The notes beneath the pieces are model-generated. The model saw only the letters and a program-made list of their open reading frames with translations. It was not told where the DNA came from and made no database searches. From Pelagibacterium luteolum (GTDB taxonomy: Bacteria; Pseudomonadota; Alphaproteobacteria; Rhizobiales; Devosiaceae), in assembly GCF_900100665.1 (NCBI RefSeq), contig NZ_FNCS01000001.1, positions 603,119 through 667,118 of the forward strand: a stretch of 64,000 nt of DNA, read 5' to 3'. The position numbers and the translations under genes are program-made. Below, piece by piece: positions 15,553-47,412 of the stretch (the first letter of the stretch is position 1; each line of letters opens with the position of its first letter).

Positions 15553-15664
15553 GACGAGCATAGCGGGGACCTCGACCGACGTTTCGGCCGCCCCGTCGGA
15601 GGTACAGCTTAGGGCATAGGCGCGGTTAGCGCCGTCATGCCCGTTGCGGTACGCGCCGTGAGCC
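15553..15664 (-). repeat. Two-hairpin dispersed element (copy next to the fabB stop codon)
   Basis: It shares with the copies at 38497-38608, 46482-46600 and 47037-47412 the blocks GACGAG, GCCCCGTCGGAGG, CATAGGCGC, GCCGTCATGCCCG and CGCCGTGAG. Between these blocks two short hairpins vary in sequence but retain pairing. Read on the minus strand, the element begins 4 bases after the fabB stop codon. It fills the whole gap between the convergent fabB and moeB-like genes. Confidence 0.8.
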
Positions 15665-15668
15665 GGAC

Positions 15669-16895
15669 CTAAGCATCCATGTGCTTGAAAACGAGGCTCG
15701 CATTGGTCCCGCCGAACCCGAAGCTGTTCGAGAGCACGATGCCCAGATCCACATTGTCGCGCCGCTGGCGCAGGATGGGCATGTCCTCGAATTCGGGGTC
15801 GAGCGTTTCGATATTGGCGCTCTCGCAGATGAACCGGTTCTGCATCATCAACAGCGAATAGATGCATTCCTGAACGCCTGTTGCGCCAAGCGAGTGCCCG
15901 GTCAGCGATTTAGTCGCCGACAAGGGTGGGCACTTGTCTTCATTGCCAAAGACGGCGCGCAGGGCTTCGATTTCCTTGCGGTCACCGACCGGTGTCGAGG
16001 TCGCATGGGGGTTGATGTAGTCGACCTTACCCTTGACCGTTTCGAGCGCCATGTTCATGCAGCGGATCGCGCCTTCGCCCGATGGCGCCACCATGTCATA
16101 GCCGTCCGAAGTCGCGCCATAGCCGATCAATTCGGCAATAATGTTCGCGCCGCGCGCCTTGGCGTGCTCGTATTCTTCCAGCACCAGGACGCCCGCACCG
16201 CCGGCGATGACGAAACCGTCGCGGTCCTTGTCATAGGCGCGGGAGGCTTTGGATGGCGTGTCGTTGAAGTTCGAGCTCATCGCGCCCATGGCGTCGAACA
16301 GGTTCGACATCGACCAGTCGAGATCTTCGTGCCCGCCCGCAAAGACGATGTCCTGCTTGCCGAGCTGGATCTGTTCGTACGCGTTGCCGATGCAATGCTT
16401 TGACGTCGCGCACGCCGACGAGATCGAATAATTGACGCCCAGGATACCATAGATCGTGGCCAGTGTTGCCGACGCCGTCGAGCTCATGGCTTTGGGTACC
16501 GCAAGCGGCCCGATGCGCTTGGGGCTCTTCTTTTCGCGGGTGATGTCGGCGGCTTCGACGACGGCGCGCGTCGACGGTCCGCCCGAACCCATGACGATCC
16601 CGGTGCGCGGGTTCTTGATGTCCTTGTCTTCAAGCCCCGACATCTTCAGCGCTTCGGCCATGGCGATATAGTTCCAGGCAGCGCCCTTGGCCATGAACCG
16701 CGTCGTACGGCGATCCAGCACTTCGAAGGGGTCGAGATTGGGGGCGCCGTGCACCTGGCACCGGAAGCCCAGATCGACATAATCCTGAGCCGTGGTTATG
16801 CCCGGACGCGCCAGTTTCAGGCTCTCGAGCACCTCGTCGAGATTGTTCCCGATTGAGGACACGATCCCCATGCCGGTGACGACAACGCGCTTCAT
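15669..16895 (-). CDS. fabB: Beta-ketoacyl-ACP synthase I
   Basis: A condensing enzyme that elongates acyl-ACP with malonyl-ACP and is essential for the unsaturated branch opened by FabA. The 408 residues carry the Cys-His-His triad: Cys in [11 protein letters not shown] (near residue 163), His in [11 protein letters not shown] and His in [11 protein letters not shown], plus the C-terminal [14 protein letters not shown]. The [18 protein letters not shown] start is standard for FabB. It follows fabA by about 100 bp on the same strand. In many rhizobia fabI comes next, but here the gene is followed by a repeat element and an opposing gene. Confidence 0.96.
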
Positions 16896-16993
16896 ATCTG
16901 CCTCTTGGTCTCTCTTGGTCTTGTCTTATCGCGAGATCGAACCGAAAAAGTCTGCGACGTTTTCTGATCCCGCTCTACGGATGAATGCGCGTT

Positions 16994-17509
16994 TTAAAGC
17001 GCGCCCATGTCCGTAAAAAGGCCGACTCGCAAATCCTTGGCCTCATAAATGGTCTTGCCATCGGCTTTTACAAAGCCGTCGGCGATCCCCAGCGTCAATC
17101 GCGAACGCATGACCCGCTTGATGTCGATGCCGTATTCGACGAGTTTGACGTCGTTGGTAATCTGACCTGTGAACTTGATTTCACCCGCCAGCGCGCGACC
17201 CCGCCCGGGCGAGCCGCCCCAGCCCAGGAAAAACCCGGTCATCTGCCACAGCGCATCAAGCCCAAGGCATCCCGGCATCACCGGATCGCCATGGAAGTGG
17301 CACGAAAAGAACCAAAGGTCGGGCGTCACGTCCAGCTCTGCGCGCACCATGCCCTTGCCATGCGGCCCGGAGGTGTCGTCGATCTGAGTAATGCGGTCGA
17401 ACATGAGCATGGGCGGGAGCGGCAACTGCGCGTTTCCCGGTCCGAATAACTCACCGCGCCCACAGGCCAGCAACTGGTCGTAATCGTAAGAATGGGCGCG
17501 GTCGGCCAT
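16994..17509 (-). CDS. fabA: 3-hydroxydecanoyl-ACP dehydratase/isomerase
   Basis: FabA dehydrates 3-hydroxydecanoyl-ACP and isomerises the product to the cis-3 form, the entry to anaerobic unsaturated fatty-acid synthesis. The 171 residues show the catalytic His in [19 protein letters not shown] and the Asp in [25 protein letters not shown] near the N-terminus is also typical. The ATG at 17509 has GAGGGGAGTCC just upstream. Together with fabB it forms the usual two-gene unit. Confidence 0.97.
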
Positions 17510-17535
17510 GGACTCCCCTCAAAGCGGTCAAAGTC

Positions 17536-17565
17536 TGTGTAGAAGGCATTTGCCTGAGGGGTCAA
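17536..17565 (-). promoter_or_regulatory. Candidate promoter of fabA-fabB
   Basis: On the minus strand TTGACC (17565-17560) is followed after 18 bp by TACACA (17541-17536), with a small palindrome AGGCAAATGCCT in the spacer. The -10 box is poor, but the position 27 bp before fabA is right, and the palindrome could be an operator. Confidence 0.4.
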
Positions 17566-17615
17566 TAGACCATTTGGCGGCGATTGCGCCATTTGGAACT
17601 TGCGCGCGCCGGCGT

Positions 17616-19115
17616 TTAAGCCATCTGCGCCTTCTTCTGGCGCCGGCGCACCACAGAAGAGGCGATTCCCATCCCCTCGCGATATTTGGCGACGGTGCGG
17701 CGCGCGACGTCGATGCCCTGCTCGCCCTTGAGCATTTCGGCGATCGTATCGTCCGAGAGAATGGCGCTAGGCTTTTCAGCATCGATCAATTGCCGGATCC
17801 GGTGACGTACGGCTTCGGCCGAATGATCCTCGCCGCCTGACGAAGAATTGAGCGCGGTGGTGAAGAAATATTTCATTTCGAACAGCCCACGCGGCGTCGA
17901 AATATATTTGTTCGCCGTTACCCGGCTGACCGTCGATTCGTGCATCTCGATTTCGGTCGCTACGGTCTTGAGCGTCATTGGCCGGAGATGAGACACGCCG
18001 TGGTTCAAAAACCCGTCCTGGAGTTTGACGATTTCGGTCGCCACTTTCAGGATTGTCTGCGCGCGCTGGTCGAGGCTCTTGGTCAGCCAGTTGGCCGTGT
18101 TGAGGCAATCGACGAGGAAACTCTTTTCACTCGCATCGCGCGTCTTTTTCGTCACCGAAGCGTAATAGGTCCGGTTGACCAGCACGCGTGGCAAAATTTC
18201 GGAATTGAGCTCGATCTGCCAGTCGCCACCCTGCCCGCGCCGCACATAGACGTCGGGAACGACCGCCTGCACCGGTGCCCCGTCGAACGCCCGCCCCGGC
18301 TTGGGATCGAGTTCGCGCAATTCGGCCAGCATGTCGAATATGTCTTCCCGATCCGCTCCGATCCGCCGCCCGAGCGTTACGAGGTCATGGCTGGCCACGA
18401 GATCGAGATTGTCGAGCAAGCCCGCCATCATTGGGTCGAGCCGGTTCTTGTCGCGCAACTGGATGGCAAGGCATTCCGGCAGGTCCCGCGCGAAAACCCC
18501 GATGGGATCGCACCCCTGAACCCGCGCCAGAACCGCCGAGATCGTTTCTGCGTCAGCCCCCAATTGCTCGGCGATCTGATCGATATCTGCAACCAGATAG
18601 CCGCGCTCGTCGAGATTATCGATCAGATTGCGCCCGATGATCCGCTCGATAGGGTCCTTGAGGATCAGATTGACCTGTTCGGCCAAATGTTCGGCCAGCG
18701 AAATCTGCGCGGAGACATATTGATCGATATCGGGCACTTCCGCACCCATCGGCCCGCTCTTGCCTTCGGGCCAGGAACTCGATTGGCTGAGCGAATCCTG
18801 CCCCGACTGTTCGGGAAAGACGTTTGCCACATCGGTATCGAAACTGTCTGCGATCGTCGTCGCGCTGCCCAGATGGTCTGAATGATCAACGACATCGCGA
18901 TAAGGATCGATTTCTTCGGCCCGTTCGCGCTCCATCGGCGTATCGCCGTCCGGCGCGTCCTCGCGCTCAAGCAGCGGATTGCGCATCATTTCGGCGTCTA
19001 CGAACGCGCTCAACTCGAGATGGCTCAATTGCAACAGCCGGATCGACGCCATCAATTGTGGCGTCAGGGTCAGACTTTGGGTCTGCCGAACATCGAGCCG
19101 TGGCGAAAGCGCCAT
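17616..19115 (-). CDS. rpoN: RNA polymerase sigma-54 factor
   Basis: Sigma-54 directs polymerase to -24/-12 promoters that need an AAA+ activator, typically for nitrogen and carbon assimilation or motility genes. The 499 residues have the Gln/Leu-rich activator-interaction region (LTLTPQLMASIRLLQLSHLEL) and an acidic second region. The core-binding domain is followed by the helix-turn-helix and the near-invariant RpoN box ARRTVAKYREGM at about residue 470. It lies downstream of lptC-lptA-lptB as in relatives. The usual downstream partners hpf and ptsN are not here but at 37.0-38.2 kb. Confidence 0.96.
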   Translation of the reverse strand: MALSPRLDVRQTQSLTLTPQLMASIRLLQLSHLELSAFVDAEMMRNPLLEREDAPDGDTPMERERAEEIDPYRDVVDHSDHLGSATTIADSFDTDVANVFPEQSGQDSLSQSSSWPEGKSGPMGAEVPDIDQYVSAQISLAEHLAEQVNLILKDPIERIIGRNLIDNLDERGYLVADIDQIAEQLGADAETISAVLARVQGCDPIGVFARDLPECLAIQLRDKNRLDPMMAGLLDNLDLVASHDLVTLGRRIGADREDIFDMLAELRELDPKPGRAFDGAPVQAVVPDVYVRRGQGGDWQIELNSEILPRVLVNRTYYASVTKKTRDASEKSFLVDCLNTANWLTKSLDQRAQTILKVATEIVKLQDGFLNHGVSHLRPMTLKTVATEIEMHESTVSRVTANKYISTPRGLFEMKYFFTTALNSSSGGEDHSAEAVRHRIRQLIDAEKPSAILSDDTIAEMLKGEQGIDVARRTVAKYREGMGIASSVVRRRQKKAQMA

Positions 19116-19228
19116 ACCGAGAAGATCCCCCTGTGAAACGAAGCGGTCCCATGCGCTTCGTGGCGGAACCTAACCAGTTTTTCCGGGGGCGACAAGCGGG
19201 CTATACAATTTCCGTGCCAGTCGGCAGG

Positions 19229-19969
19229 CTACATCGAAAAACTTTCACCCAAATAGACGCGGCGTGCGTCGGGGTCGGCCATGATGGTTTCGGGCCGGCC
19301 CTGGATCATCACCTTGCCCCCATGGATCAGATAGGCGCGGTCGACGAGCCCGAAGGTTTCGCGCACCTGATGGTCGGTGATCAACACCCCGATCCCGCGC
19401 GCCGTCAATTGCCGCACCAGCGCCTGGATATCGGCAACGGCGATCGGATCGACGCCTGCGAAGGGCTCGTCGAGCAGCATGAATTTGGGATCGGCCGCCA
19501 GCGCGCGGGCAATTTCAACGCGTCGCCGCTCGCCCCCCGACAGCGCAAGCGCATCGGAATCGCGCAAATGCGAGACGGAAAATTCCTCGAGCAGTTCATC
19601 GAGCCGCGCATTGCGTTCCGCGCGGTTCTTGATGTGGCCCTCGAGCACGGCCAGCACATTGTCCTTGACCGTCAGTCCACGAAAAATCGAGGCTTCCTGC
19701 GGCAGATAGCCAATCCCCAGACGCCCGCGCTGATAGAGCGGCAGATGGGTGATCGGCAGCCCGTCGAGCAGCACCTGTCCGCCATCGGGCCGCACCAGCC
19801 CCATGATCATTGTAAAGACCGTGGTCTTGCCCGCGCCGTTCGGCCCGAGCAGGCCAACGGCTTCGCCGCGCCGCACCGCGATCGAAACATCGCGCACCAC
19901 GGCGCGTTTCTTGAAGCTCTTGGCAAGACCATGGGCAACGAGCCAGCCGGTCTGATCGATACCCGCCAT
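19229..19969 (-). CDS. lptB: LPS export ABC transporter ATP-binding protein LptB
   Basis: LptB is the cytoplasmic ATPase that powers extraction of lipopolysaccharide from the inner membrane by LptFG and its push across the LptCAD bridge. The 246 residues contain Walker A GLLGPNGAGKTTVFTMIMGL near residue 38, a Q-loop at YLPQEASIFRGL, the signature LSGGERRRVEIARALA, Walker B FMLLDEPFAGVDP near 161, and ITDHQV for the H-loop. Its ATG overlaps the stop codon of lptA by one base. Confidence 0.96.
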   Translation of the reverse strand: MAGIDQTGWLVAHGLAKSFKKRAVVRDVSIAVRRGEAVGLLGPNGAGKTTVFTMIMGLVRPDGGQVLLDGLPITHLPLYQRGRLGIGYLPQEASIFRGLTVKDNVLAVLEGHIKNRAERNARLDELLEEFSVSHLRDSDALALSGGERRRVEIARALAADPKFMLLDEPFAGVDPIAVADIQALVRQLTARGIGVLITDHQVRETFGLVDRAYLIHGGKVMIQGRPETIMADPDARRVYLGESFSM

Positions 19970-20481
19970 CAGCCCCCCGGGGTGAAGGTCGATTGCACCC
20001 GCCCGCCACCGCCACCCTCGGATGAGAACGACGAGGTACCGGCCCGTGTGTCGATCACCAGCCGCTGGGCATTGACGGTCCCGCTGGCATTGACCACCAC
20101 CACGTCCCCGGTGAACGTCAGGACGCGCGAGCCGAAATCATAAAATGCCTGGTTGCCTTCGACCGTCTGATCGTCGAATTCCATAAACACCCGCCCGCCC
20201 GAAGCGGTGAAGCTTTCGAGGTCGGACGGTCCGCCCTCGCCATAAACAGTGCGCAACTCTGGTGCTGTCAGCCGCATCGTGCCCTGGGTGATTTCGACAT
20301 TGCCGGTAAAGAGCGCCGTCGATTCGTTTTCGTCGACATCGAGATTGTCGGCAGTGACGTTGACCTGCTCATCGGCGCTCTCGGCCAATCCTCCGAACCC
20401 GGCCGGATCGGAAACTGTCGTCTGCGCAAAGGCGGGGGCACCCAGCAATAAGGCGGCGACAAACACACTAGTTCTCAGCAT
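19969..20481 (-). CDS. lptA: Lipopolysaccharide transport periplasmic protein LptA
   Basis: LptA forms the periplasmic bridge carrying LPS from LptC to the outer-membrane LptDE complex. From the ATG at 20481 it has 170 residues with a signal peptide MLRTSVFVAALLLGAPAFAQ. The OstA/LptA beta-jellyroll follows (VTADNLDVDENESTALFTGN, ITQGTMRLTAPELRTVYGEG, LTFTGDVVVVNASGTVNAQR). The C-terminal tail is glycine-rich. It overlaps lptC by 14 bases and lptB by 1 base, so the three genes are translationally coupled. Confidence 0.92.
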   Translation of the reverse strand: MLRTSVFVAALLLGAPAFAQTTVSDPAGFGGLAESADEQVNVTADNLDVDENESTALFTGNVEITQGTMRLTAPELRTVYGEGGPSDLESFTASGGRVFMEFDDQTVEGNQAFYDFGSRVLTFTGDVVVVNASGTVNAQRLVIDTRAGTSSFSSEGGGGGRVQSTFTPGG

Positions 20482-21142
20482 CGGGCGCCTCCACGGCAAA
20501 GGGATCACGTTCGGCTCCGCTATCGTCCTGCGGCACCATGTCGAGCGAAACGCGGGTAAACTGCCAGCGGGCAGCGTCAATATCGTGAACCATCGTATCG
20601 GCAACAAGTTGCGCGCCGCTATCGAAATTGAACCGGATGGGCCCATCGGATGTGATCATCTGATTGGGCCAATCGACCTCGACCCCGGCCAGAATGCCGC
20701 GCGCGCCGGTCGAATCCGACACCGCGACATCCTCATTGGACGTCAGATATTCGGTGCTCATCGTCCAGGTCGCTGTCGTAAATTCGACCTCGGCTTCATA
20801 GCCTGCATTGCCGGCCAGATCGATGCGCAGCCCGAAGAGATCGACGGTATCGAGATCCCCGACCCGGGTTTCGGCCCGGTCCGACACCATTGCGTAATTC
20901 GTGCCCGTCGCCGTACGGCCCTCAAAGGTCGGGCCATCGATCACCAGCGTATCGTTTTCGAGCCGTATCCCTTCAATGGGAATCGCATCGGCGGCCATCG
21001 ACAAAGCCAGTTGAATGGCCGGCACCGCAAGGATCAACAGCCCGCCGACCGGCACCACCCAGCGCAGCATAGCAACGCGCCGGTTGTGCCCGGCAAAACG
21101 CTTGTAGGTTTCAAGCCTGACGCTGGCCGTCGGCGGGGTCAC
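20468..21142 (-). CDS. lptC: LPS export protein LptC
   Basis: LptC is the bitopic inner-membrane component that receives LPS from LptB2FG and passes it to LptA. The 224 residues have a short basic cytoplasmic start, one transmembrane segment at about 26-46 (LRWVVPVGGLLILAVPAIQL), then a periplasmic LptC-type beta fold (IEGIRLENDTLVIDGPTFEG). The start appears to be GTG at 21142; a downstream ATG would cut into the membrane segment. The assignment rests on topology and position ahead of lptA-lptB. Confidence 0.85.
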   Translation of the reverse strand: MTPPTASVRLETYKRFAGHNRRVAMLRWVVPVGGLLILAVPAIQLALSMAADAIPIEGIRLENDTLVIDGPTFEGRTATGTNYAMVSDRAETRVGDLDTVDLFGLRIDLAGNAGYEAEVEFTTATWTMSTEYLTSNEDVAVSDSTGARGILAGVEVDWPNQMITSDGPIRFNFDSGAQLVADTMVHDIDAARWQFTRVSLDMVPQDDSGAERDPFAVEAPDAEN

Positions 21143-21157
21143 GACGCGTGTCCGATC

Positions 21158-21775
21158 CTAGCTGTGCGCGAAAATGTCGATCTCGGGCCAGCCGGCCAGA
21201 TCGAGTTTCGTGCGCGTGGGCAGGAAGTCAAAGCACGCCTTGGCCATCTCCATCCGGGCTTCACGGCCAAGCATGCGATCGAGATGGCGGCGCAGATCGT
21301 GAAGATAGAGAACGTCCGAGGCTGCATAATCGAGCTGTGCCTGGCTCAGCGTTTCCGCGCCCCAGTCCGACGATTGCTGCTGCTTGCTCATATCGACGTT
21401 CAACAGTTCGCGCGAAAGATCTTTCAGCCCGTGCCGGTCGGTATAGGTCCGCACGAGTTTTGAGGCGATCTTGGTGCAATAGACCGGGGTCGGCATCACG
21501 CCAAACGCCGCATAAAGCGCCGCCATGTCGAAACGCGCGAAATGAAACAGCTTGGTTTTGCTCTCGTCCGCCAGAAGCGCCTTGAGATTGGGGGCGTCGG
21601 TCTGGCCGGGCGCGATCTGCACAACATCGGCCGTTCCGTCACCGGGCGAAAGCTGCACAACACACAGCCTGTCGCGTGCCGGGTTGAGCCCCATGGTCTC
21701 GGTATCGATCGCCACTTGCCGGCCGGAATAGCGGGAGAGATCGGGCAGATCGCCCTTGTGCAGTCGAACGCTCAT
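21158..21775 (-). CDS. rnd: Ribonuclease D (single-domain form)
   Basis: A DEDD-family 3'-5' exoribonuclease involved in tRNA 3' maturation. The 205 residues hold only the exonuclease domain: ExoI AIDTETMGLN, ExoII LFHFARFDMAALYA and ExoIII DYAASDVLYLHDL. The C-terminal HRDC domains of the E. coli enzyme are missing, as is common in Rhizobiales. The start is the ATG at 21775 (MSVRLHKGDLPDL). The frame upstream runs toward a tRNA gene and looks non-coding. It precedes lptC by 15 bases and may lead the lpt operon. Confidence 0.92.
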   Translation of the reverse strand: MSVRLHKGDLPDLSRYSGRQVAIDTETMGLNPARDRLCVVQLSPGDGTADVVQIAPGQTDAPNLKALLADESKTKLFHFARFDMAALYAAFGVMPTPVYCTKIASKLVRTYTDRHGLKDLSRELLNVDMSKQQQSSDWGAETLSQAQLDYAASDVLYLHDLRRHLDRMLGREARMEMAKACFDFLPTRTKLDLAGWPEIDIFAHS

Positions 21776-21942
21776 CGTGGTCCTGTCTTTAAGGCCGGCA
21801 CAACCGGATGGAGAAAAACAAAGGCGAGCGTGTGGCCACGCCACAGCAACCGCCAGGGTCAGGCGTTGATGCCACAGGAGCACGCGCGCTGCAAAGGCCA
21901 AAGCCCGCACAAGGCGACAATCGCTTAAAATCTAAGGGGGGA

Positions 21943-35061: not shown

Positions 35062-35143
35062 ACGATCACCATTTTTGCGCCCTAGCCCTGCCTCGCCATT
35101 CACCGCTTTCAGCGACCATTAATATCGCAAGGATACTGTCGGA

Positions 35144-35319
35144 GCGCTTCCAGCAAAAGTGGGTACCACTTTTGCGGTTCGGAAGCGCGATAAAACAGGA
35201 AAGTTCTCCAGCGCTTCCAGCAAAAGTGGGTACCACTTTGGTGGTTCGGAAGCGCGACAAACAAGACGGTTTCCAGCGCTACCGGTAAAAGCGGGTATCA
35301 CTTTTGTGGCTGAGGCGCT
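35144..35319. repeat. Three-unit array of 44-46 bp palindromes
   Basis: The units at 35144-35189, 35211-35256 and 35276-35319 each start GCGCTTCC (or GCGCTACC), contain CAAAAGTGGGTACCACTTTTG-like symmetry and end GGAAGCGC (or GAGGCGCT). Each is therefore a palindrome inside a palindrome, spaced about 65 bp apart. They fill the divergent gap between the dehydrogenase (starting 35061) and the SH3 gene (35419). Single copies occur at 8294 and 32696. Nothing else is evident in the 35062-35418 gap. Confidence 0.85.
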
Positions 35320-35418
35320 ACCAAGCGATGGGACCGGGCCGAAGCCAAGTCGAACTACACTACCGTCGCGCCAAACGCCTCAAGAGAGCCTTTTGCGGTG
35401 CGACGTCCAACAGGGTGC

Positions 35419-38234: not shown

Positions 38235-38287
38235 CCATTGGCACCATGCCCCGCAGGTCCGGCCCTCCCCGTTTCCCCAACCCACCA

Positions 38288-38414
38288 CCGTCACCCTCGG
38301 GCTTGACCCGAGGGCCCAAGCCGCTCGCCCGCGCGAACGCTTGTAGAAAGCGTCATATCGGGTCGCTGCGCCAGCAACAGATGGGTCCTCGGGGCAAGCC
38401 CGAGGATAACGATG
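38288..38414. repeat. Large intergenic palindrome (CCTCGGG type)
   Basis: The outer parts GTCACCCTCGGGCTTGACCC and GGGGCAAGCCCGAGGATAAC are complementary, and each arm carries its own small hairpin (CCTCGGGCTTGACCCGAGG). This is the GTCATCC(T/C)CGGGCTTG type found in many alphaproteobacterial genomes. A related copy lies at 46929-47030. With the terminator and the two-hairpin element it fills the 38178-38610 gap, and I see no gene there. Confidence 0.7.
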
Positions 38415-38454
38415 GAGATGGATTGGCCGCGCCGGACAACCGCCAGGCAATCCT

Positions 38455-38608
38455 GGCGCATTATGCCCGCAGCGGTGCGCACCCTCAGACAGACTGGACG
38501 AATTCTGCGAGGACCCCGGCGATCGTTCGCCGCCCCGTCGGAGGGCCAGTGGAAACCATAGCGCGGGTTTAGCGCGTCATGGTTTTCACGGTGCGGCCCG
38601 CGAGACAG
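38455..38608 (-). repeat. Two-hairpin dispersed element (one full copy plus a fragment)
   Basis: The full copy spans 38497-38608 with GAGGACCCCGGC, GCCCCGTCGGAGG and a right end of GCGAGACAG. Hairpin cores are GGCGATCGTTCGCC and GCGCGGGTTTAGCGC. The right-hand end of a second copy (ATGCCCGCAGCGGTGCGC...CAGACAG) precedes it at 38455-38493. On the minus strand the element starts 2 bases after the DUF1150 stop codon. Confidence 0.75.
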
Positions 38609-38610
38609 AA

Positions 38611-38910
38611 CTAGTGCAACGTCGCCAGCCGCACTTCGTGGCCGTCGATCCAGTCCATGATCGCCTCACGCGAATCCGCGATCAGCACGGGGGCGCCGTC
38701 GGCGCTCATCAGGAGTTCGAGTTCCTGTTCGGCGGGTGCCATCGCGGCCTGGGGGATGAATTCGGCCAGGTCCCCGGCCACCATCTTTTTCCAGAATACG
38801 ATATCGCCGGCGCCGAGCGCCGCGAACTGGGCGGCGGTCAGGGTCTTGAGCGGTTCGGCCGATCCGCCCAGATGGGCGTCAGTGAACGCAGTTTTTTCAA
38901 TAGGCTTCAT
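38611..38910 (-). CDS. DUF1150 family protein
   Basis: 99 residues, MKPIEKTAFTDAHLGGSAEP, YxxD-like ALGAGDIVFWKKMVAGDL and ending SREAIMDWIDGHEVRLATLH. I recognise the small DUF1150 family, regularly found beside a small heat-shock gene in this order. Its function is unknown. It lies 13 bp downstream of the hsp20 gene and is probably co-transcribed, sharing the heat-shock promoter. Confidence 0.88.
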   Translation of the reverse strand: MKPIEKTAFTDAHLGGSAEPLKTLTAAQFAALGAGDIVFWKKMVAGDLAEFIPQAAMAPAEQELELLMSADGAPVLIADSREAIMDWIDGHEVRLATLH

Positions 38911-41371: not shown

Positions 41372-41387
41372 CACGTGTCCTCGTCAA

Positions 41388-41819
41388 TTATTGTGCTGCG
41401 GTGACCCGGAGGATCGCCGTGTTCGACGTCGCATGGACTGTGGCCCCGCGCGCTACGACCCTGAAAAGGCTCTGATCCATCCACGGCTCGACCGCCGGGA
41501 CCACGAGTTCAGCCCCTACCGCCACATCCCGAAACGTCGCCCCGTCATCGGTGCTCACCTGCCAGAGGTAGTCGAATTCTTCAGCCCCGCTGACGCTGAA
41601 CCGGGCAGCGTATCCCGCGATGGTGACGATTTCGGCTGGAGCAATCGCGACGAATTGGTCAATCGCGGTGGCACCGTCCATGTGCTGGCTTCTCACGCTC
41701 GAAGCGCCACCGGTGGCAACCCACAAGAGCGAGGACAAAAGCGCTCCGCACCCGACCAACCCAATGATTCCCGGCCCCAATGTGAAATGGCCCTCGCGCT
41801 CGGATATCGCCATCATCAC
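41388..41819 (-). CDS. Hypothetical membrane-anchored protein with an Ig-like fold region
   Basis: 143 residues. A hydrophobic stretch near residues 14-38 (LGPGIIGLVGCGALLSSLLW) should be a membrane anchor. The exported part contains FSVSGAEEFDYLWQVSTDDG and SLFRVVARGATVHATSNTAI, reminiscent of the Ig-like segments that read YQWQVSTDGG in adhesins. AAGGAGG lies 9 bases before a GTG start at 41819; ATG codons at 41816 and 41813 are alternatives. It is upstream of the Sel1 gene by 16 bp, probably in the same operon. The function is unknown. Confidence 0.7.
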   Translation of the reverse strand: MMMAISEREGHFTLGPGIIGLVGCGALLSSLLWVATGGASSVRSQHMDGATAIDQFVAIAPAEIVTIAGYAARFSVSGAEEFDYLWQVSTDDGATFRDVAVGAELVVPAVEPWMDQSLFRVVARGATVHATSNTAILRVTAAQ

Positions 41820-42009
41820 AAACCGCCGCCTCCTTGCGTGTCTCCGATCAAAATACCGGCGCCAGCGGCGCTGGCGTTATCCACTCCGTCTCAAATTGGT
41901 GCACCAACTTGCCCGACAGTCTCAAAAGTGCGGCATCGGACCCCGCAGATGACTTGACCGCGTGCCATGTTGCCGAAATATGCAAAATGCGGACGGGATG
42001 GGAGACGAC

Positions 42010-43047
42010 ATGAGCCAGGCGGGGGAGACCGACTACAGCGGTGGGGTGATCCCGGCCGCCATGATCCGGTTCTGCACCAGCCAAGTGGTGCCGCCCGAGC
42101 GCTATCCAGCCTTCAAGATCCGCATCAACACCATGTTCGACATGGATCCCGACGCCGAGCGCGCCCCTGCCGATTTTGCCGGCCGCATCACCAGCACGCA
42201 CACCGGCCAGATGCTGGTCAGCGCCATGGAAACCGAAACCTTCCGCTTCGAGCGTTCCCGCAAGCGTCTGATGATCGACCATCTCGATCATATGATGGTC
42301 CGCGTCGATCTCGATGGCCCATGGGATCGTGGTGGCGCGGCGCATGCGCTCACCATCATCGATCTCGGCCAGGTGACTGAGACCGCCGATATCGCCTGCC
42401 ATAACATTTCACTCGTCGTGCCCCGGCGGGCCTTGGCCGAATCCCTGCCCGGCATGGACCGCCTGCATGCGAACCGGCTCACATCGCCTTCCGCGCTCAT
42501 CCTTGCCGATCATATCGTCTCGCTCATGCGCCATGCCGATGGTCTCGACCCCGATGTCGTTGGCGCGCTCTCCGATATCACCCCGGCCCTGATTGCCGCA
42601 TGCCTGCGGCCGCAATTGCGGGCCGAAGGGCTGGCGCAGCGCGAGTTCGACATCATGATGCTCGAACGCGTCCGCGCGTGCCTGCGCGCCAATCTCTACA
42701 ATCCCGCCCTCGACCCCGATTTCCTTCAAAAGACCGCCGGGGTCTCCCGCGCTACGCTATACCGCCTGTTCGAGCCCATGGGCGGTGTCGCCGCCGCCAT
42801 TCGCACGGCAAGGCTGCGCCAGGCGTTGCGCGATATCGCCCGGACCGGCCCGGACGCAAAAATCGCAGACATTTCCCACGCGCTCGGCTTTTCCTCCGAC
42901 GCCCATTTCAGCCGGAGCTTCAAGGCTCATTTCGGCTGCTCGCCGCGCGACGCCCGCACCATGATGGCAAGTGGCCCGCCCCTGCCGCTAACCCCCGCCC
43001 TCTCCGGTGCCCAGCGTCGCTTTCCCGAATGGCTCAACACGCTCTGA
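42010..43047 (+). CDS. AraC-family transcriptional regulator
   Basis: 345 residues. The N-terminal ~220 residues resemble the AraC-binding-like domain of many AraC regulators (RITSTHTGQMLVSAMETETF, HLDHMMVRVDLDG). The C-terminus has two helix-turn-helices, FLQKTAGVSRATLYRLFEPM and IADISHALGFSSDAHFSRSF, ending KAHFGCSPRDART. The ATG at 42010 has GGGAG about 6 bases upstream and is preferred over earlier in-frame starts. No obvious target gene is adjacent, and the inducer is unknown. Confidence 0.92.
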   Translation: MSQAGETDYSGGVIPAAMIRFCTSQVVPPERYPAFKIRINTMFDMDPDAERAPADFAGRITSTHTGQMLVSAMETETFRFERSRKRLMIDHLDHMMVRVDLDGPWDRGGAAHALTIIDLGQVTETADIACHNISLVVPRRALAESLPGMDRLHANRLTSPSALILADHIVSLMRHADGLDPDVVGALSDITPALIAACLRPQLRAEGLAQREFDIMMLERVRACLRANLYNPALDPDFLQKTAGVSRATLYRLFEPMGGVAAAIRTARLRQALRDIARTGPDAKIADISHALGFSSDAHFSRSFKAHFGCSPRDARTMMASGPPLPLTPALSGAQRRFPEWLNTL

Positions 43048-43152
43048 ACCACTTGCGGCACGAATCACGCCCCATGCAACCTCTTGAACCCATTGCGCGT
43101 TATGGTGAGGTCCATGGGGACTGAACACTCAACTGCTGTTGTGGGGATCAAA

Positions 43153-43404
43153 ATGGAAGACGCAGGTATCGGCTGGATTGCAGCCATCATCATCGGGGGT
43201 CTCGCTGGTTGGATCGCATCTGCGATCATGAAGACCGGCACCGGTATTTTTCTCAACATCGTGCTCGGCATCGTCGGTGCCGCCATCGCCAGCTTCCTGT
43301 TTGGCCTGATCGGCGTCTCGTTCGGTGGCTGGTTCGGCTATCTCATCGCCGGCCTGATCGGTGCGTGTATCCTGATTGCGCTCGTCCGCGCCATCCGAAG
43401 GTAG
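43153..43404 (+). CDS. GlsB/YeaQ/YmgE-family stress-response membrane protein
   Basis: 83 residues with three hydrophobic segments, GWIAAIIIGGLAGWIASAIM, IFLNIVLGIVGAAIASFLFG and WFGYLIAGLIGACILIALVR. The IIGGLAGWIAS and NIVLGIVGA motifs define this small inner-membrane family, often induced by osmotic or general stress. The ATG at 43153 follows GGGGATCAAA. It is a single-gene unit. Confidence 0.92.
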   Translation: MEDAGIGWIAAIIIGGLAGWIASAIMKTGTGIFLNIVLGIVGAAIASFLFGLIGVSFGGWFGYLIAGLIGACILIALVRAIRR

Positions 43405-43582
43405 CGCCGACGACAATCTCTATCATGGAGCCCCGGTGGATCACCCGATCCGCCGGGGCTTTGCATTTATCCCAAACGGAAAGACCCCAATCGCAGCACT
43501 GCGCATACGACCGCTAACTCTTGTCTTGGCGCCGTCCGCCTATCCTCGCCCCGTCCACGTGCTATTGCAGAGGGGAACGAGC

Positions 43583-44017
43583 ATGGCCCGGCGCGGTTGT
43601 CGGCAGAGATTTGGGACTGATCGGGCGGGCTCCTCCGCCGTCGAATTTGCCTTGCTCGCGCCGGTCTTCCTGCTCCTTGTGCTCGGCGCGCTCGCTTACG
43701 GCATATATTTCGGCGCCGCTCATTCGGTCCAGCAACTGGCTGCCGACGCCGCCCGGGCCGCCGTGGCCGGCCTATCCTCTACCGAGCGCACCACGCTCGC
43801 CGAAGGGTTTATCACCGCCAACGGTGCCAGCTACGTCCTCATCGATCCCGCGCGCCTCGCGATCGAAGCGACCCCCAGCCCGTACGATCCAGACCAGTTT
43901 CTCGTGCGCCTGTCCTATGATGCCGGCAATCTGCCCATCTGGAACCTCTATCCGCCCATCCCGCTCCCCGATCAGATCATCGTTTTCGCCTCCACCATCC
44001 GCAATGGCGGGGTCTGA
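43583..44017 (+). CDS. TadE-like pilus assembly/pseudopilin protein
   Basis: 144 residues with the TadE-type N-terminus: a short basic stretch, then RAGSSAVEFALLAPVFLLLV, where the Glu inside the hydrophobic segment is the hallmark of Flp/TadE prepilin-like proteins. The remaining ~90 residues are exported. AGAGGGG precedes the ATG at 43583. It is followed 3 bases later by a TadG-like gene, but no TadA, TadB, TadC or Flp genes are in the window. Confidence 0.88.
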   Translation: MARRGCRQRFGTDRAGSSAVEFALLAPVFLLLVLGALAYGIYFGAAHSVQQLAADAARAAVAGLSSTERTTLAEGFITANGASYVLIDPARLAIEATPSPYDPDQFLVRLSYDAGNLPIWNLYPPIPLPDQIIVFASTIRNGGV

Positions 44018-44020
44018 TCC

Positions 44021-45676
44021 ATGCCCGGCCTTTTCGCCCGCTGGCTTGCCGACGAGGCCGCCAACATGGCGACGCTCTTTGCGCTGGTGTCTCCGGTGCT
44101 GATCGGCGTCGCCGCCTTTGCCGTCGATGAAGCCTCGCTCCACCTCGAACGCCGACAGCTCCAGTCGGTTGCCGATCTCGCCGCCATCCACGCTGCCGGC
44201 GATCCCCAAAACGCAGAGGCGCGCATCGCCACTGTCCTTTCAGATTTCGGCTATACCCTCCCGCCTGACGCCGTCACCGTCACACCGGGCCGCTACAGCA
44301 CCGATCCGGCCCAGCCCGCCCACACGCGGTTCATGCCCGCCGCCACCCCCGCCAATGCTGTCTCCGTCGCCCTCACCCATCCGGGGCAATTGCATTTCGC
44401 CTCGATCTTTAACATGGCCCCGCCCGATATCGGTGTTTCGGCGATTGCCGCCGCCACGCCCCGCGCCGCCTATTCCATCGGCTCGCGCCTTGCCAGCCTC
44501 AATGGCGGCGTGCTGAACGCCGTCCTCGGCGGCCTTCTGGGCACCGAGCTTTCCCTTTCGCTGGTCGATTATCAAGCGATAGCCAGCCTCGATATCGAGC
44601 TTTTGGATTTCCTCGATGCCCTGGCCGGCCATCTCGACCTCACCGCCGGCACCTATGGCGATCTTCTGGCCAGCGATATCGCGCTCTCCGACATCGCCAT
44701 CGCCCTCTCCGGCGCTGCGGGCGGCAACGCCGTGCTGCTGCGCCTCGCCGGGCTGATCGACGATGAGATCGCCATCGAAATGGCCCGCCTCATCGCCGCC
44801 GATGGCCTGGCCCACCTTGCGATCGGTACCTCCGCTGCCATCGTTGCCGACCTCAATGCCCTGCAACTGCTCTCCGCCGCAGCTTTGGTCGCCGATGGCA
44901 ATCGCCACATCACCCTGGGGCTCGGCGCAAACGTTCCTGGCCTTGTCGGCATCGATGTCGCCCTCGTCATCGGCGAGCCCCCGCAGGGCGGGTTTTTCAC
45001 CCTGGCTGGAGAAGGCAGCTATGTCCGCACCGCCCAGACCCGCCTGCGCCTCGATCTCGACATCGCCGGCAATACCTCGGGGCTGGGTCTTCTTTCGATC
45101 CGTCTGCCCGTCTATGCCGAACTCGCCCCCGCCGAAGCGCGCCTCGCTGCCGTCTCGTGTCCCCCCGGACGCCCCGAGGCCGCTTCGGCAATCCTTGCCG
45201 TGACCCCCGGCACCCTCCGCCTGGCGATCGGACACACGGCCCCGGCCAGCTTTCTCGACACCGATCGTCCGCTGGTGGTCAACAAAACCCCCCTCGTCTC
45301 GCTTTTAGGCGGCATCGCGCGCGTCAACGCCCATGTCGATATCGCCATGGCCCAAACGCAGCCCGTTTCGGTCGGATTTACCCATGCCGATATCGCCGCC
45401 CGCACGGTCCGGACGGTTTCGACCACCACGCCCCTCGCCAGCCTCACCGGCTCGCTCCTCGGCAACCTCGATCTCGAACTTGAAGTCCTGCGCTTAAATC
45501 TTTTGGGCGGCCTGCTCTCGGGCGCCACCGGCGCCGTCCGCGGCCTCATCGCCCCGGTCATCCCCGCCCTTGATCAGACCCTCATCGCGCTTTTCGACGT
45601 CCTCGGCCTGGGCCTCGGCCAGGCCGACCTCCGCATCCACGGCTTCGACTGCCGCAACGCCGCACTTGTCGGGTGA
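44021..45676 (+). CDS. TadG-like envelope protein
   Basis: 551 residues. The start DEAANMATLFALVSPVLIGVAAFAVDEASL matches the TadG-type membrane N-terminus, followed by LHLERRQLQSVADLAAIHAAG. The rest is extremely rich in Ala, Leu, Gly and Asp with recurring segments such as LDIELLDFLDALAGHLDLTA and LLASDIALSDIAIAL. These look like an irregular repeat fold rather than the von Willebrand domain of many TadG proteins. It forms an operon with the TadE-like gene. Confidence 0.82.
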   Translation: MPGLFARWLADEAANMATLFALVSPVLIGVAAFAVDEASLHLERRQLQSVADLAAIHAAGDPQNAEARIATVLSDFGYTLPPDAVTVTPGRYSTDPAQPAHTRFMPAATPANAVSVALTHPGQLHFASIFNMAPPDIGVSAIAAATPRAAYSIGSRLASLNGGVLNAVLGGLLGTELSLSLVDYQAIASLDIELLDFLDALAGHLDLTAGTYGDLLASDIALSDIAIALSGAAGGNAVLLRLAGLIDDEIAIEMARLIAADGLAHLAIGTSAAIVADLNALQLLSAAALVADGNRHITLGLGANVPGLVGIDVALVIGEPPQGGFFTLAGEGSYVRTAQTRLRLDLDIAGNTSGLGLLSIRLPVYAELAPAEARLAAVSCPPGRPEAASAILAVTPGTLRLAIGHTAPASFLDTDRPLVVNKTPLVSLLGGIARVNAHVDIAMAQTQPVSVGFTHADIAARTVRTVSTTTPLASLTGSLLGNLDLELEVLRLNLLGGLLSGATGAVRGLIAPVIPALDQTLIALFDVLGLGLGQADLRIHGFDCRNAALVG

Positions 45677-45710
45677 TGAACAAGACCACAGTTTCGCAAT
45701 CAGCCGCTGC

Positions 45711-45756
45711 CAGCCCCCTCTCCCTTTGAGGGAGGGGGTTGGGGGTGAGGGGGGGC
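45711..45756. repeat. CCCTCTCCC-type hairpin repeat between convergent genes
   Basis: CCCCCTCTCCCTTTGAGGGAGGGGG is a strong hairpin followed by GTTGGGGGTGAGGGGGG. It lies between the TadG-like gene and the convergent YdeI gene and could end both transcripts. It is related in composition to 4269-4402 and 61141-61205. Confidence 0.65.
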
Positions 45757-45784
45757 TTGCTGCGCTCGTCGCTGCCTCGTCCGC

Positions 45785-46387
45785 CTATTTCCCCCGCCCA
45801 TTGGGATAGAGCGTCTTTCCCTCGGCCAGCATGGCCACGAACTTCTCGATATTACGCGCCCGCGTCTCGGCCCGCTTGACCCCGTTGATCCGAAACATCA
45901 GCGCATAAAGATTGGCGCGGTTCAGCGTCTCATACGTCGCAAGCGCTTGCGGGTTCACCCGCACCGCCGCCAGAAAATCCTCCGGCATCACGAACTCCGC
46001 CCCCGAAGCGTATGCAGCATCCCAGCGTCCATCGGCCTTGGCGGCTTCCACCTGCGCCAGCCCGGGATCGCGCATCAGCCCCTTTTCGATCAGATCGCCC
46101 ACATGGCGCGTATTGATCTGGCTCCAGATCGATTTCTTCCGCCGCGGCGTAAATCGCAAAAGATAGGAGGCCTCATCGTGGGTTTTCTTGATCCCGTCGA
46201 TCCACCCCCAGCACAACCCGGCCCGCACCGCCTCCTCATAAGAGATCGTCGCCACCCCCGACCCCTTCTTGAAGAACTGCACCCAAACTTCGTCCCACTC
46301 CGCCCCATGCTGGGCCAGCCATGCGTAAAACGTCTCGAAATCGGCAAACGGACGAATCTTTTCAGGATCGGGAACAACAGGCGGCAT
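45785..46387 (-). CDS. YdeI/OmpD-associated family protein
   Basis: 200 residues from the ATG at 46387. WDEVWVQFFKKGSGVATISY, GLCWGWIDGIKKTHDEASYL, LRFTPRRKKSIWSQINTRHV and DGRWDAAYASGAEFVMPEDF are the characteristic blocks of this family, sometimes annotated as bacteriocin protection proteins. The molecular role is not established. The frame extends 53 codons further upstream through a repeat element; that part is not coding. Confidence 0.92.
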   Translation of the reverse strand: MPPVVPDPEKIRPFADFETFYAWLAQHGAEWDEVWVQFFKKGSGVATISYEEAVRAGLCWGWIDGIKKTHDEASYLLRFTPRRKKSIWSQINTRHVGDLIEKGLMRDPGLAQVEAAKADGRWDAAYASGAEFVMPEDFLAAVRVNPQALATYETLNRANLYALMFRINGVKRAETRARNIEKFVAMLAEGKTLYPNGRGK

Positions 46388-46481
46388 GAGCGTCTCCAGG
46401 CACTGCCGCAAACCTAGCTCAACCTCTAAATGCTGGAAAGCTGTCCTGTGGCGGGGCGTCTGGGGTTGGAGGTGGCCGCCG

Positions 46482-46600
46482 GACGAGGCAAAGCCGAGGA
46501 CCCCGCGCGATTTCTCGCGCCCCGTCGGAGGCGCAGTGAAGGACATAGGCGCCGCTTTTTGGTGCCGTCATGCCCGCAACGGTACGCGCCGTGAGACAGA
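46482..46600 (-). repeat. Two-hairpin dispersed element (copy downstream of tRNA-Ala)
   Basis: Blocks GACGAGGCAAAGCCGAGGAC, GCCCCGTCGGAGGCGCAG, ACATAGGCGCC, GTGCCGTCATGCCCG and CGCCGTGAGACAG match the tandem copies at 47037-47412. The internal hairpins are GCGCGATTTCTCGCGC and GGCGCCGCTTTTTGGTGCC. On the minus strand it starts 54 bases after the 3' end of tRNA-Ala. Confidence 0.8.
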
Positions 46601-46654
46601 GAAAACCATTCGTTGCCCGAATGCCAACGAAGACCAAATTTTTGTAAAGACGAA

Positions 46655-46730
46655 TGGTGGAGCCAAGCGGGATCGAACCGCTGACCTCCTGCATGCCATG
46701 CAGGCGCTCTCCCAGCTGAGCTATGGCCCC
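46655..46730 (-). tRNA. tRNA-Ala (anticodon GGC)
   Basis: The minus strand reads GGGGCCA...TGGCTCC, a 7-bp acceptor stem with one G-U pair, then A and encoded CCA. The D-arm is AGCTCAGCTGGGAGAGC. The anticodon stem CCTGC/GCAGG holds the loop ATGGCAT (anticodon GGC), and the T-arm is GCGGTTCGATCCCGC. It is 76 nt with CCA. No clear promoter was found immediately upstream. Confidence 0.96.
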
Positions 46731-46928
46731 ATCGTTTCGGTACGCTCAAGGCGTCCCTGGGTGGTTCGCCAGGACCCCTGCCGAACCGGCGCGAACCTAT
46801 GTGAGACTGTTTTGCGACGCAAGTACAAATCTCACCCCGCATCGCACTTTTTTCCATGCGCTCGACGGCCCTGCCCGGAGCACTGCAAGCGCGGACGAAA
46901 TCAGATCAGCGACCGCGCCACCCTCCCC

Positions 46929-47030
46929 CGTCATCCCGGCCTTGCGCCGGGACCCAGTATGCTCCGTGTTCGAGGCGACCCTGGGCTTTCACCATTACGT
47001 CCGAGCGTACTGGGCCCCGGGGTGACAGCG
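46929..47030. repeat. Large intergenic palindrome (GTCATCCCGG...GGGGTGAC type)
   Basis: CCGTCATCCCGG...GGGACCCAGTATGCTC on the left and GAGCGTACTGGGCCCCGGGG on the right are complementary over about 30 bp with some mismatches. The left arm forms its own hairpin (CCCGGCCTTGCGCCGGG). It is related to 38288-38414. The 46731-47036 stretch holds no gene I support. Confidence 0.7.
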
Positions 47031-47036
47031 GTGGGT

Positions 47037-47412
47037 GGCGAGGCTGAAGTGGGTTCTCGGGTGCGCCGCGCCGTCGCAAGGGACAACGCAGGGCATAGAC
47101 GCGCAGGCCGGCGGCGCGAGGCAGAAGGACCAAGCGCCGTCATGCCCGAAGCGGTTCGCCCCGTGAGACAATCGGACGAGGCAAAGCCGAGGACCCCGGC
47201 CAACTTTTTGGCCGCGCGGTTGCAGGGGCAGCGCAGGGCGTAGGCGCGGTCTTAGCGCCGTCATGCCCGAAGCGGTTCGCCCCGTGAGACAATCGGACGA
47301 GGCAAAGCCGAGGACCCCGGCCAACTTTTTGGCCGCGCCGTCGCAGGGGCAGCGCAGGGCGTAGGCGCGGCCTTAGCGCCGTCATGCCCGAAGCGGTGCG
47401 CCCCGTGAGACA
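47037..47412 (-). repeat. Tandem array of the two-hairpin dispersed element (three copies)
   Basis: Two near-identical copies, 47175-47291 and 47296-47412, repeat with a 121-bp period and differ at only a few positions. A more divergent third copy at 47037-47170 precedes them. Each contains GAGGACCCCGGC, a GGCCAACTTTTTGGCC-type hairpin, GCAGGGCGTAGGCGC, a GGCGCGG.CTTAGCGCC hairpin and the end GCCGTCATGCCCGAAGCGG. On the minus strand the array begins right behind the terminator of the TIGR02300 gene. Confidence 0.9.

What the first reader, a model, noticed from the sequence alone, without database searches (positions are those of the whole stretch)
15553..47412. A dispersed two-hairpin element with covarying stems, always in one orientation behind minus-strand genes
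I count six or more copies: 15553-15664, 38497-38608 (plus a fragment at 38455), 46482-46600, and three in 47037-47412. Conserved linear blocks flank two hairpins whose arms differ between copies while pairing is kept. Stem 1 examples are GGCGATCGTTCGCC, GCGCGATTTCTCGCGC and GGCCAACTTTTTGGCC; stem 2 examples are GGCGCGGTTAGCGCC, GGCGCCGCTTTTTGGTGCC and GCGCGGGTTTAGCGC. On the minus strand each locus begins with a (C)TGTCTCACGG-like end lying 2 to ~54 bases after a gene: fabB, DUF1150, tRNA-Ala and the TIGR02300 gene. Stem preservation and fixed placement argue for a functional 3' structured element or a mobile repeat targeting 3' ends. I do not recognise it as a named family.
Basis: partly seen in the sequence, partly recalled or inferred. 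Interest (0 to 1): 0.72.

Follow-up and report, generated by a model that had tools for sequence, protein, structure and literature searches.

The report
Two-hairpin repeat anchored at gene ends
A short, about 120-base DNA repeat that can fold into two hairpins is scattered between genes in the bacterium Pelagibacterium and some close relatives, usually sits with one particular end against the end of a gene, and looks more like a small piece of mobile DNA than a conserved regulatory RNA.

Summary
In detail: five full copies, one interrupted copy and a fragment, all in one orientation. A covariance model finds 8 copies in the 4.3-Mb genome and copies in all 13 searched genomes of the genus (Pelagibacterium, inferred). 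Rfam gives no match. Covariation far exceeds chance: 388 both-sided changes against 118 shuffled. Placement is polar. None of 128 copies overlaps a gene by more than 40 bases; 28 of 50 typed loci are convergent gaps, and in 26 of those the same element end lies nearer its gene end. In four Pelagibacterium chromosomes 13 of 13 loci lie on one strand.

A non-autonomous mobile repeat is favoured over a host 3'-UTR RNA: presence differs between related species at the same gap; the closest same-locus copies differ by pair-breaking changes (7 breaking, 0 compensatory), different-locus copies mostly by compensatory ones; half-copies recur. No target duplication was seen. No Y1 (REP-type) transposase was found in 23 genomes of the family, so the mover is unknown. 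In passing: sampled GC skew is almost one-sided around three Pelagibacterium chromosomes, possibly unidirectional replication; controls were few and not all clean.

The parts
15551..15667 (-). Full copy, T orientation (5' end at 15667), in the convergent gap between fabB (15669-16895, -) and a ThiF/MoeB-family gene (14779-15519, +)
   Evidence: 119.2 bits with model R1; 1 base from the fabB stop; gene families
38495..38609 (-). Full copy, T orientation, 1 base after the stop of the DUF1150 gene (38611-38910, -)
   Evidence: 109.2 bits; placement
38455..38494 (-). Truncated 5' part that follows the copy above head to tail and stops near the apex of hairpin 2 (boundaries read by eye)
   Evidence: sequence; the same kind of truncation at other loci
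46480..46600 (-). Full copy, T orientation, 54 bases after tRNA-Ala (46655-46730, -)
   Evidence: 122.0 bits; tRNA; placement
47035..47172 (-). Interrupted, degenerate copy with extra sequence in the hairpin-2 loop; last unit of the tandem array in T orientation
   Evidence: 56.3 bits; alignment
47173..47293 (-). Full copy, middle unit of the 121-base tandem array
   Evidence: 143.6 bits; 121-base direct repeat, 98% identity
47294..47414 (-). Full copy, first unit of the array in T orientation, 12 bases after the TIGR02300 gene (47427-47888, -) and just behind a terminator-like hairpin
   Evidence: 144.3 bits; placement; terminator-like hairpin
47318..47335 (-). Hairpin 1 (7 pairs) in the best-scoring copy
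   Evidence: pairs 25-31 with 36-42 of alignment A2; 97.1% of cells paired over 104 copies
47346..47404 (-). Hairpin 2 (18 pairs in four stacked helices) in the best-scoring copy
   Evidence: helices 2-5 paired in 88.8-98.2% of cells

Best explanation
This is a family of short (about 110-125 bases), non-coding, non-autonomous mobile intergenic repeats of Pelagibacterium and some related Devosiaceae (family name inferred). Each copy has a conserved 5' end (about TTYTGYCTCACGG in T orientation), a large hairpin of 18 pairs, a small hairpin of 7 pairs, and a conserved 3' end (about GGGGTCCTCGGCTTYGCCTCGTCC). New copies enter intergenic DNA with the T 5' end toward the 3' end of a gene, most often between convergent genes. 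Pairing of both stems is required while copies are being produced: among similar copies at different loci, stems change faster than loops and mostly in compensating pairs. It is not, or only weakly, held afterwards at the host site, where stems decay. Tandem arrays and half-copies then arise locally by recombination or slippage. Shown here: anatomy, covariation, distribution in the genomes searched, polarity, strand uniformity at the loci sampled in four chromosomes, presence/absence differences, pair-breaking changes in the closest same-locus copies. Inferred: that copies move, and that a hairpin-recognising enzyme acting on single-stranded DNA at the replication fork does it. No mover was identified.
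For: Compensatory pairs far above both controls (repeated on 86 distinct rows). 0 of 128 copies overlap a called gene or tRNA by more than 40 bases (7 distances are slightly negative, the largest overlap 33 bases in three copies at one locus); 50 of 95 unique gaps are convergent against 120 of 1011 element-free gaps. One T end is anchored: T 5' end nearer in 26 of 28 convergent locus groups, 23 of 25 without the groups made of inverted pairs; within 5 bases of a same-strand gene end in 31 of 99 copies, against 1 of 80 for the other end at a facing gene end. At the gap behind fabB the element is present in 6 and absent in 13 of 19 genomes, judged by eye, among the absentees one with a 3-base gap. 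Presence differs between related species behind groEL, a Fur-like gene, ccrM and two other loci. Same-locus pairs with loop divergence under 5% (7 pairs): stem divergence 0.031, loop 0.021, with 7 pair-breaking, 1 pair-keeping single and 0 compensatory changes; different-locus pairs at 5-12% (153 pairs): stem 0.191, loop 0.103, with 485 compensatory against 107 breaking changes. No target duplication signal. Half-copies lie next to full copies.
Against: No mobiliser found: Y1_Tnp has no match in the 23 genomes of the family searched. No insertion was dated or seen within one species. Some loci are occupied in several species and even across genera (behind purH in 7 genomes). In the next divergence bin (5-12%, 7 same-locus pairs) compensatory changes (7) are not rarer than breaking ones (5), with stems 0.099 and loops 0.102 divergent. 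At the groEL locus, copies in two species differ by a compensatory change scored (a second seen by eye), which selection at the site would also give. The decay result rests on 7 non-independent pairs, and few compensatory changes are expected at low divergence under any model. At higher divergence (above 0.2) stems and loops diverge about equally in both kinds of pair. For copies that have a same-locus copy elsewhere, the nearest relative in another genome is at a different locus in 47 and at the same locus in 28, which gene conversion could also cause.
Confidence: 0.66

Rival explanations
1. A functional 3'-UTR RNA element: transcribed behind fabB, purH, groEL and tRNA genes, it folds into two hairpins that set 3' ends, stability or termination, and selection at each site keeps the pairing.
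For: Strong covariation; the T 5' end is the one near gene ends; it lies between the groEL stop and a terminator-like hairpin (by eye) and between tRNA-Ile and tRNA-Ala in two genomes, an rRNA-spacer-like arrangement; occupied at some orthologous sites in several species; a compensatory change at groEL; same-locus pairs at 5-12% loop divergence show 7 compensatory against 5 breaking changes.
Against: Absent behind fabB in 13 of 19 genomes; half-copies and deletions at fixed sites; in the closest same-locus pairs stems drift as fast as loops; in 10 of 17 same-strand groups it runs against the genes; one copy lies just upstream of a start codon on the other strand; the wobble excess (59 G-U to 30 A-C) is in the orientation antisense to T.
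Confidence: 0.19
2. A REP/BIME-type repeat moved by a Y1 (RAYT or IS200/IS605-type) transposase that recognises single-stranded hairpins on the lagging-strand template.
For: Paired hairpins, no target duplication; strand uniformity in Pelagibacterium; inverted pairs with a constant 31-base spacer in G013, five, one of which rests on a weak truncated match.
Against: PF01797 found in 0 of 23 genomes of the family, while it rang in 5 of 14 control genomes; 8-30 copies in 7 genomes searched closely, not hundreds; the strand uniformity does not hold in G013 or G017.
Confidence: 0.1
3. A site-specific recombination array of the integron attC type, in which circles of one unit insert at a resident end and build head-to-tail arrays behind genes.
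For: Single orientation within arrays, imperfect hairpins, head-to-tail arrays, half-copies at array ends.
Against: In the 1.93 Mb searched, 14 of 14 outlying 5' halves lie within 75 bases of a full copy, though one solitary half-copy exists elsewhere in the window's genome; no attC core motif seen by eye (the motif is recalled); the neighbours are unrelated core genes, not cassettes. No integrase search was made.
Confidence: 0.04

Closest known systems
RIME1/RIME2 and ABC/Sm repeats of rhizobia (Osteras et al. 1995; paper not held, details recalled)
   Same: Short intergenic repeats of alphaproteobacteria with palindromes and unknown function; PMC2573895 (passages read) says rhizobial genomes have dozens of such intergenic sequences with conserved primary sequence and secondary structure.
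   Different: Sequence homology could not be tested (no RIME sequence at hand). In a sample of 199 genomes of the order only 6 matched, 4 of the window's family including its own genome.
Bru-RS1/Bru-RS2 of Brucella (seen only as a reference title in PMC2267715)
   Same: Repeated palindromic DNA elements of a related alphaproteobacterium, by title.
   Different: Not compared; sequences not at hand.
REP/BIME elements and RAYT transposases (PMC2817692: start of abstract, one passage)
   Same: Extragenic palindromes; inverted composites in one genome (G013); intergenic.
   Different: Two different hairpins per 120-base unit, low copy number, head-to-tail tandems, no Y1 transposase match in 23 genomes of the family.
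MITEs and RUP/Correia-type elements (recalled)
   Same: Short, non-coding, non-autonomous, intergenic.
   Different: No terminal inverted repeats seen by eye and no target-site duplication signal.
IS200/IS605-derived palindrome-associated elements (PMC7290912, search listing only)
   Same: Hairpins inside the element, no target duplication, possible strand preference (features of that family recalled).
   Different: No Y1 transposase match; no fixed target motif seen by eye when occupied and empty sites were compared.

Membership tests
REP/BIME with RAYT | Y1 (HUH) transposase gene in the same genome | tested here: not met
   PF01797: 0 of 23 genomes of the family; 5 of 14 control genomes rang. 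A divergent enzyme below the Pfam model's reach is not excluded
REP/BIME with RAYT | High copy number (usually more than 100 per genome, per the PMC2817692 abstract) | tested here: not met
   8-30 copies in 7 genomes searched closely
REP/BIME with RAYT | Alternating orientation with constant spacing | tested here: inconclusive
   Five inverted pairs with a 31-base spacer in G013, one with a weak truncated member (four); Pelagibacterium arrays are head to tail
MITE | Target-site duplication | tested here: not met
   Mean longest word shared by the two flanks 4.53 against 4.80 shuffled, 47 loci
MITE | Terminal inverted repeats | tested here: not met
   Ends TTYTGYCTCACGG and CTCGTCC are not complementary; by eye from the end profiles
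Rfam RNA family | Match to a curated covariance model | tested here: not met
   Only 2 tRNAs in the window at gathering threshold; in five copy-bearing loci at E up to 1, none of 6 matches overlaps a copy
RIME1 (rhizobia) | Sequence homology to RIME1 | not testable with these tools
   Paper not held; no sequence available
IS200/IS605-derived non-autonomous element | Ends shared with a Y1-coding element in the genome | tested here: not met
   No Y1 match; half-elements only near full copies in the 1.93 Mb sampled, which is a part of the genomes
Integron attC | RYYYAAC/GTTRRRY core sites (recalled) | tested here: inconclusive
   Not seen by eye in the end profiles; no dedicated search made
Cis-regulatory 3'-UTR RNA | Pairing maintained at fixed sites | tested here: inconclusive
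   Closest same-locus pairs: 7 breaking, 0 compensatory; next bin 5 breaking, 7 compensatory; one compensatory change at groEL

The most novel reading that the evidence does not exclude
The repeat is copied through single-stranded DNA at the replication fork by an unrecognised hairpin-dependent enzyme, with its T strand laid down in one replication polarity. On Pelagibacterium chromosomes, whose sampled GC skew does not reverse, the copies therefore all face the same way. The family would then be a natural record of unidirectional, single-replichore replication of a main bacterial chromosome.
Probability: 0.1. Interest if true: 0.85.

Novelty: new variant of a known kind. Interest (0 to 1): 0.5.

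Why it matters
Short palindromic repeats are common in bacteria, but what moves them is often unknown outside the RAYT system (recalled). This family is small and well aligned, shows strong compensatory evolution, a sharp insertion polarity and no known mover, so it offers a clean case for finding one. It also warns that covariation alone need not prove a host RNA: here pairing may be kept in transit and lost at the site. If the strand uniformity and the one-sided GC skew share a cause, both bear on how these chromosomes replicate.

Tried and rejected
RAYT/REP transposase: sought with PF01797, no match. Rfam: no match on a copy. Target-site duplications: no signal. Preference for intrinsic terminators: 28 of 93 sites have a terminator-like hairpin just upstream against 26 of 300 control positions, but the element's own T-rich end biases this test, so I do not rely on it. 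Solitary half-elements as recombination sites: in 1.93 Mb all 14 outlying 5' halves lie within 75 bases of a full copy, and 2 outlying 3' halves lie 33 and 247 bases from one; one solitary half-copy was found elsewhere in the window's genome. Wobble asymmetry as a test of the transcribed strand: 59 G-U against 30 A-C, of which 29 and 9 come from one helix; too weak, and opposite to T. Co-orientation with transcription as the rule: dropped, 7 to 10 by locus group. Literature, from listings: searches (20 of 63 papers listed; 6 of 6; 5 of 5) on RIME, (1 of 1; 4 of 4; 20 of 23; 10 of 651) showed nothing on this element; the Devosia genus paper PMC6981132 mentions palindromes only for CRISPR (passages), and PMC2267715 shows Brucella and Rickettsia as alphaproteobacteria in the table passage seen. 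Searches (9 of 9; 2 of 2), GC skew with Devosia or Pelagibacterium, listed no relevant paper. Only CC-licensed PMC papers are held, so absence from print is not shown.

Rows dropped or chosen: loci L058 and L065 (overlap L030 and L051); genome G012 wherever G009 was present, and pairs with fewer than 40 comparable loop columns, and within arrays the partner with the smallest loop divergence was taken, 7 of 128 copies lacked a neighbour on one side, 4 of 54 locus groups could not be typed, the distances of a group are the minimum over its copies, and 8 of 32 Pelagibacterium groups had local skew within 0.02 and were left out of the sign test. The 128 copies are those in fetched regions, not all copies of the genomes.
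Full report
WHAT IS THERE. The window holds five full copies, one interrupted copy and one truncated fragment of a repeat of about 120 bases, all in one orientation. Gene families at the four loci were confirmed.

HOW MANY AND WHERE. A covariance model R1 was built from five window copies. In the window's own genome (4.3 Mb, 50 contigs) it finds 8 copies at E below 1e-9, six of them in this window. In 61 genomes (own plus relatives) 25 have matches at E up to 0.01, among them all 13 genomes of the genus that were searched, with 1 to 21 matches each. A second model R2 from 88 copies matched 6 of 199 genomes of the order, four of them in the window's family including its own, and 1 of 142 of the class, the window's own; scans of more than 40 genomes use stricter filters that lose weak matches. 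A contig of 660,887 bases that bears the element is Pelagibacterium sediminicola, equal in length to contig C25 of G002, so the genus is inferred to be Pelagibacterium and the family Devosiaceae. Genome G013 is very likely the metagenome-derived chromosome CP051235.1 (Devosia sp. ih3; lengths differ by 100 bases).

COVARIATION. On 104 distinct copies 96.1% of pair cells are paired (75.9% shuffled), 388 cells changed on both sides (118.0 shuffled), and none of 500 shuffles reached either; sliding the partners by 1 to 3 columns drops pairing to 30-50%. The alignment was fitted to the structure, which favours it; the plain MAFFT alignment of five copies agrees in kind. Folding energies of single copies are not exceptional.

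PLACEMENT. Among 128 copies in fetched regions of 15 genomes, none overlaps a called gene or tRNA by more than 40 bases; seven distances are negative, the largest overlap being 33 bases in three copies at one locus. Of 95 unique gaps, 50 are convergent, 38 same-strand and 7 divergent, against 120, 667 and 224 of 1011 element-free gaps of at least 20 bases (Fisher p about 3e-19). By length too, convergent gaps make up only 24,613 of about 211,400 bases of element-free gap. Genes were called with a simple script trained on long reading frames, not with a standard gene finder. Copies fall into 54 locus groups by flanking-gene families, of which 50 could be typed: 28 convergent, 17 same-strand, 5 divergent. 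In 26 of the 28 convergent groups the T 5' end is the nearer end (p about 3e-6), 23 of 25 if groups of inverted pairs are left out; in 8 of 28 it lies within 5 bases, against 0 of 28 for the other end. In the 17 same-strand groups T runs with the genes in 7 and against them in 10. Counted over copies, the T 5' end is within 5 bases of a same-strand gene end in 31 of 99, the T 3' end of a facing gene end in 1 of 80. So the polarity is an anchoring of one element end toward a gene 3' end, not a rule of co-transcription. The neighbours anchored within about 10 bases include fabB, purH, groEL, lpd, a Fur-like gene and tRNA-Ala, with ccrM at about 55 bases; the names purH, groEL, lpd, ccrM and Fur-like were recognised from printed translations, without a family search.

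STRAND. In four Pelagibacterium genomes in one or two contigs (G001, G007, G008, G009) all 13 locus groups lie on one chromosome strand, T on the strand that is G-rich in the samples (p about 2.4e-4). By single matches: 10 of 10 in G007, 9 of 9 in G008, 11 of 11 in G009, 8 of 9 in G001; the odd one is weak (E 0.002) and was not among the 128 copies. Over all Pelagibacterium locus groups, 20 have T on the locally G-rich strand, 4 the opposite, and 8 have local skew within 0.02 (p about 0.0015 without the 8). The rule does not hold in G013, where both orientations occur and five inverted pairs have a constant 31-base spacer (one pair includes a truncated match of 27.1 bits, the other four are also), nor in G017.

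MOBILE OR FUNCTIONAL? Three tests were made. (1) Presence and absence, judged by eye. At the gap behind fabB the element is present in 6 of 19 genomes (G000, G007, G008, G009, G011, G012; degenerate in G008, 5'-deleted in G011) and absent in 13; G006 keeps the same gene pair with 3 bases between the stop codons. Behind groEL it is present in G001, G008 and G011 (and in G010), truncated in G007, absent in G000 and G009; behind a Fur-like gene it is full in G007 and G008, a remnant in G001, absent in G000, G009, G011 and G012; behind ccrM it is full in G001, G007 and G011, a half-copy in G008, G009 and G012, absent in G000. (2) Decay. Same-locus pairs with loop divergence under 5% (7 pairs): 7 pair-breaking, 1 pair-keeping single and 0 compensatory changes, stems 0.031 and loops 0.021 divergent. 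Different-locus pairs under 5% (10 pairs): 0 breaking, 5 pair-keeping single, 1 compensatory. Same-locus pairs at 5-12% (7 pairs): 5 breaking, 10 pair-keeping single, 7 compensatory, stems 0.099 and loops 0.102. Different-locus pairs at 5-12% (153 pairs): 107 breaking, 91 pair-keeping single, 485 compensatory, stems 0.191 and loops 0.103. Above 0.2 the two kinds of pair look alike. The pairs are not independent, and few compensatory changes are expected at low divergence. (3) Half-copies. Truncated 5' parts that end near the apex of hairpin 2 follow full copies or remain alone. Taken together, pairing seems to be kept while copies are produced and held weakly or not at all at the site. Against this stand some loci shared across species and genera, the compensatory changes in the 5-12% same-locus bin, and one at groEL (a second seen by eye).

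MECHANISM. No target duplication signal and no Y1 transposase match in 23 genomes of the family, with 5 of 14 control genomes ringing. I therefore propose, as inference only, an unrecognised enzyme that acts on the hairpins in single-stranded DNA. Anchoring to gene ends and strand uniformity would follow if single-stranded DNA at gene 3' ends and at the fork is the target. Tandem arrays could follow from recombination between direct repeats.

SIDE FINDING: ONE-SIDED GC SKEW. Samples of 20 kb spread round the chromosomes (about 10% of G007, G009 and G013, 5% of G008 and G001) show almost no reversal. The third-codon replication component is positive in 19 of 20 samples of G009, negative in 18 of 20 of G007, positive in 8 of 10 of G008, and positive in 19 of 20 of G013; G001 is mixed (8 of 10 negative). 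In G009 dnaA lies at 1.3 kb of the contig and the samples on both sides of it have the same sign. Whole-genome counts of GGGAGGNG, forward to reverse, are 170:319 in G007, 315:167 in G009 and 285:163 in G008, against 444:424 in G018; but G033, whose samples do change sign, also has 135:229, so these counts are not a clean test. Sample controls were few: G033 of the same family changes sign, G018 and G054 are mostly one-sided in 7 and 6 samples, and G324 of another family is mixed in 20 samples of 4 kb. A published survey (PMC7858055, passages read) predicted unidirectional replication by GC skew for 77 of 16,103 large replicons, some of them in Alphaproteobacteria; its list was not readable here, so these genomes may already be on it. 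SkewDB (PMC8941118, passages read) reports chromosomes with asymmetric skew.

VERDICT. On checking against the calls I lowered this from 0.68 to 0.66 and raised the 3'-UTR rival from 0.17 to 0.19, because the 5-12% same-locus bin had been left out. It is a new variant of a known kind, the short palindromic intergenic repeats of bacteria, not shown to be a REP/RAYT element or a MITE, with untested relation to RIME.

Noticed in passing
G007, G008, G009, G013 chromosomes; window 8001-64000 has negative skew on +: Sampled GC skew keeps almost one sign round the chromosome, on both sides of dnaA in G009 and also at third codon positions, as if there were a single replichore; whole-genome motif counts agree but are not a clean test.
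   Followed up: partly
window 5761-7302 (-): The window contains dnaA, and six of the genome's eight element copies lie within about 42 kb of it.
   Followed up: no
window 46931-47025 and 38285-38415: Other intergenic palindromic repeats (CCCGGCCTTGCGCCGGG-type and CCCTCGGGCTTGACCCGAGGG-type inverted repeats) share gaps with this element; similar ones occur in relatives' gaps (by eye).
   Followed up: no
window 35143-35326: Three neighbouring copies of about 52 bases (AGCGCTTCCAGCAAAAGTGGGTACCACTTTT...), with a diverged copy at 8284.
   Followed up: no
L113, L118, L120, L125 (G013): Five inverted pairs of the element with a 31-base spacer, a BIME-like composite; one pair includes a weak truncated match.
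   Followed up: partly
L036 and L222 (G006, G004): A copy sits between tRNA-Ile and tRNA-Ala, which looks like an rRNA-operon spacer.
   Followed up: no
L118:1304-1520 (G013): Cobalamin riboswitch, 118.9 bits.
   Followed up: no
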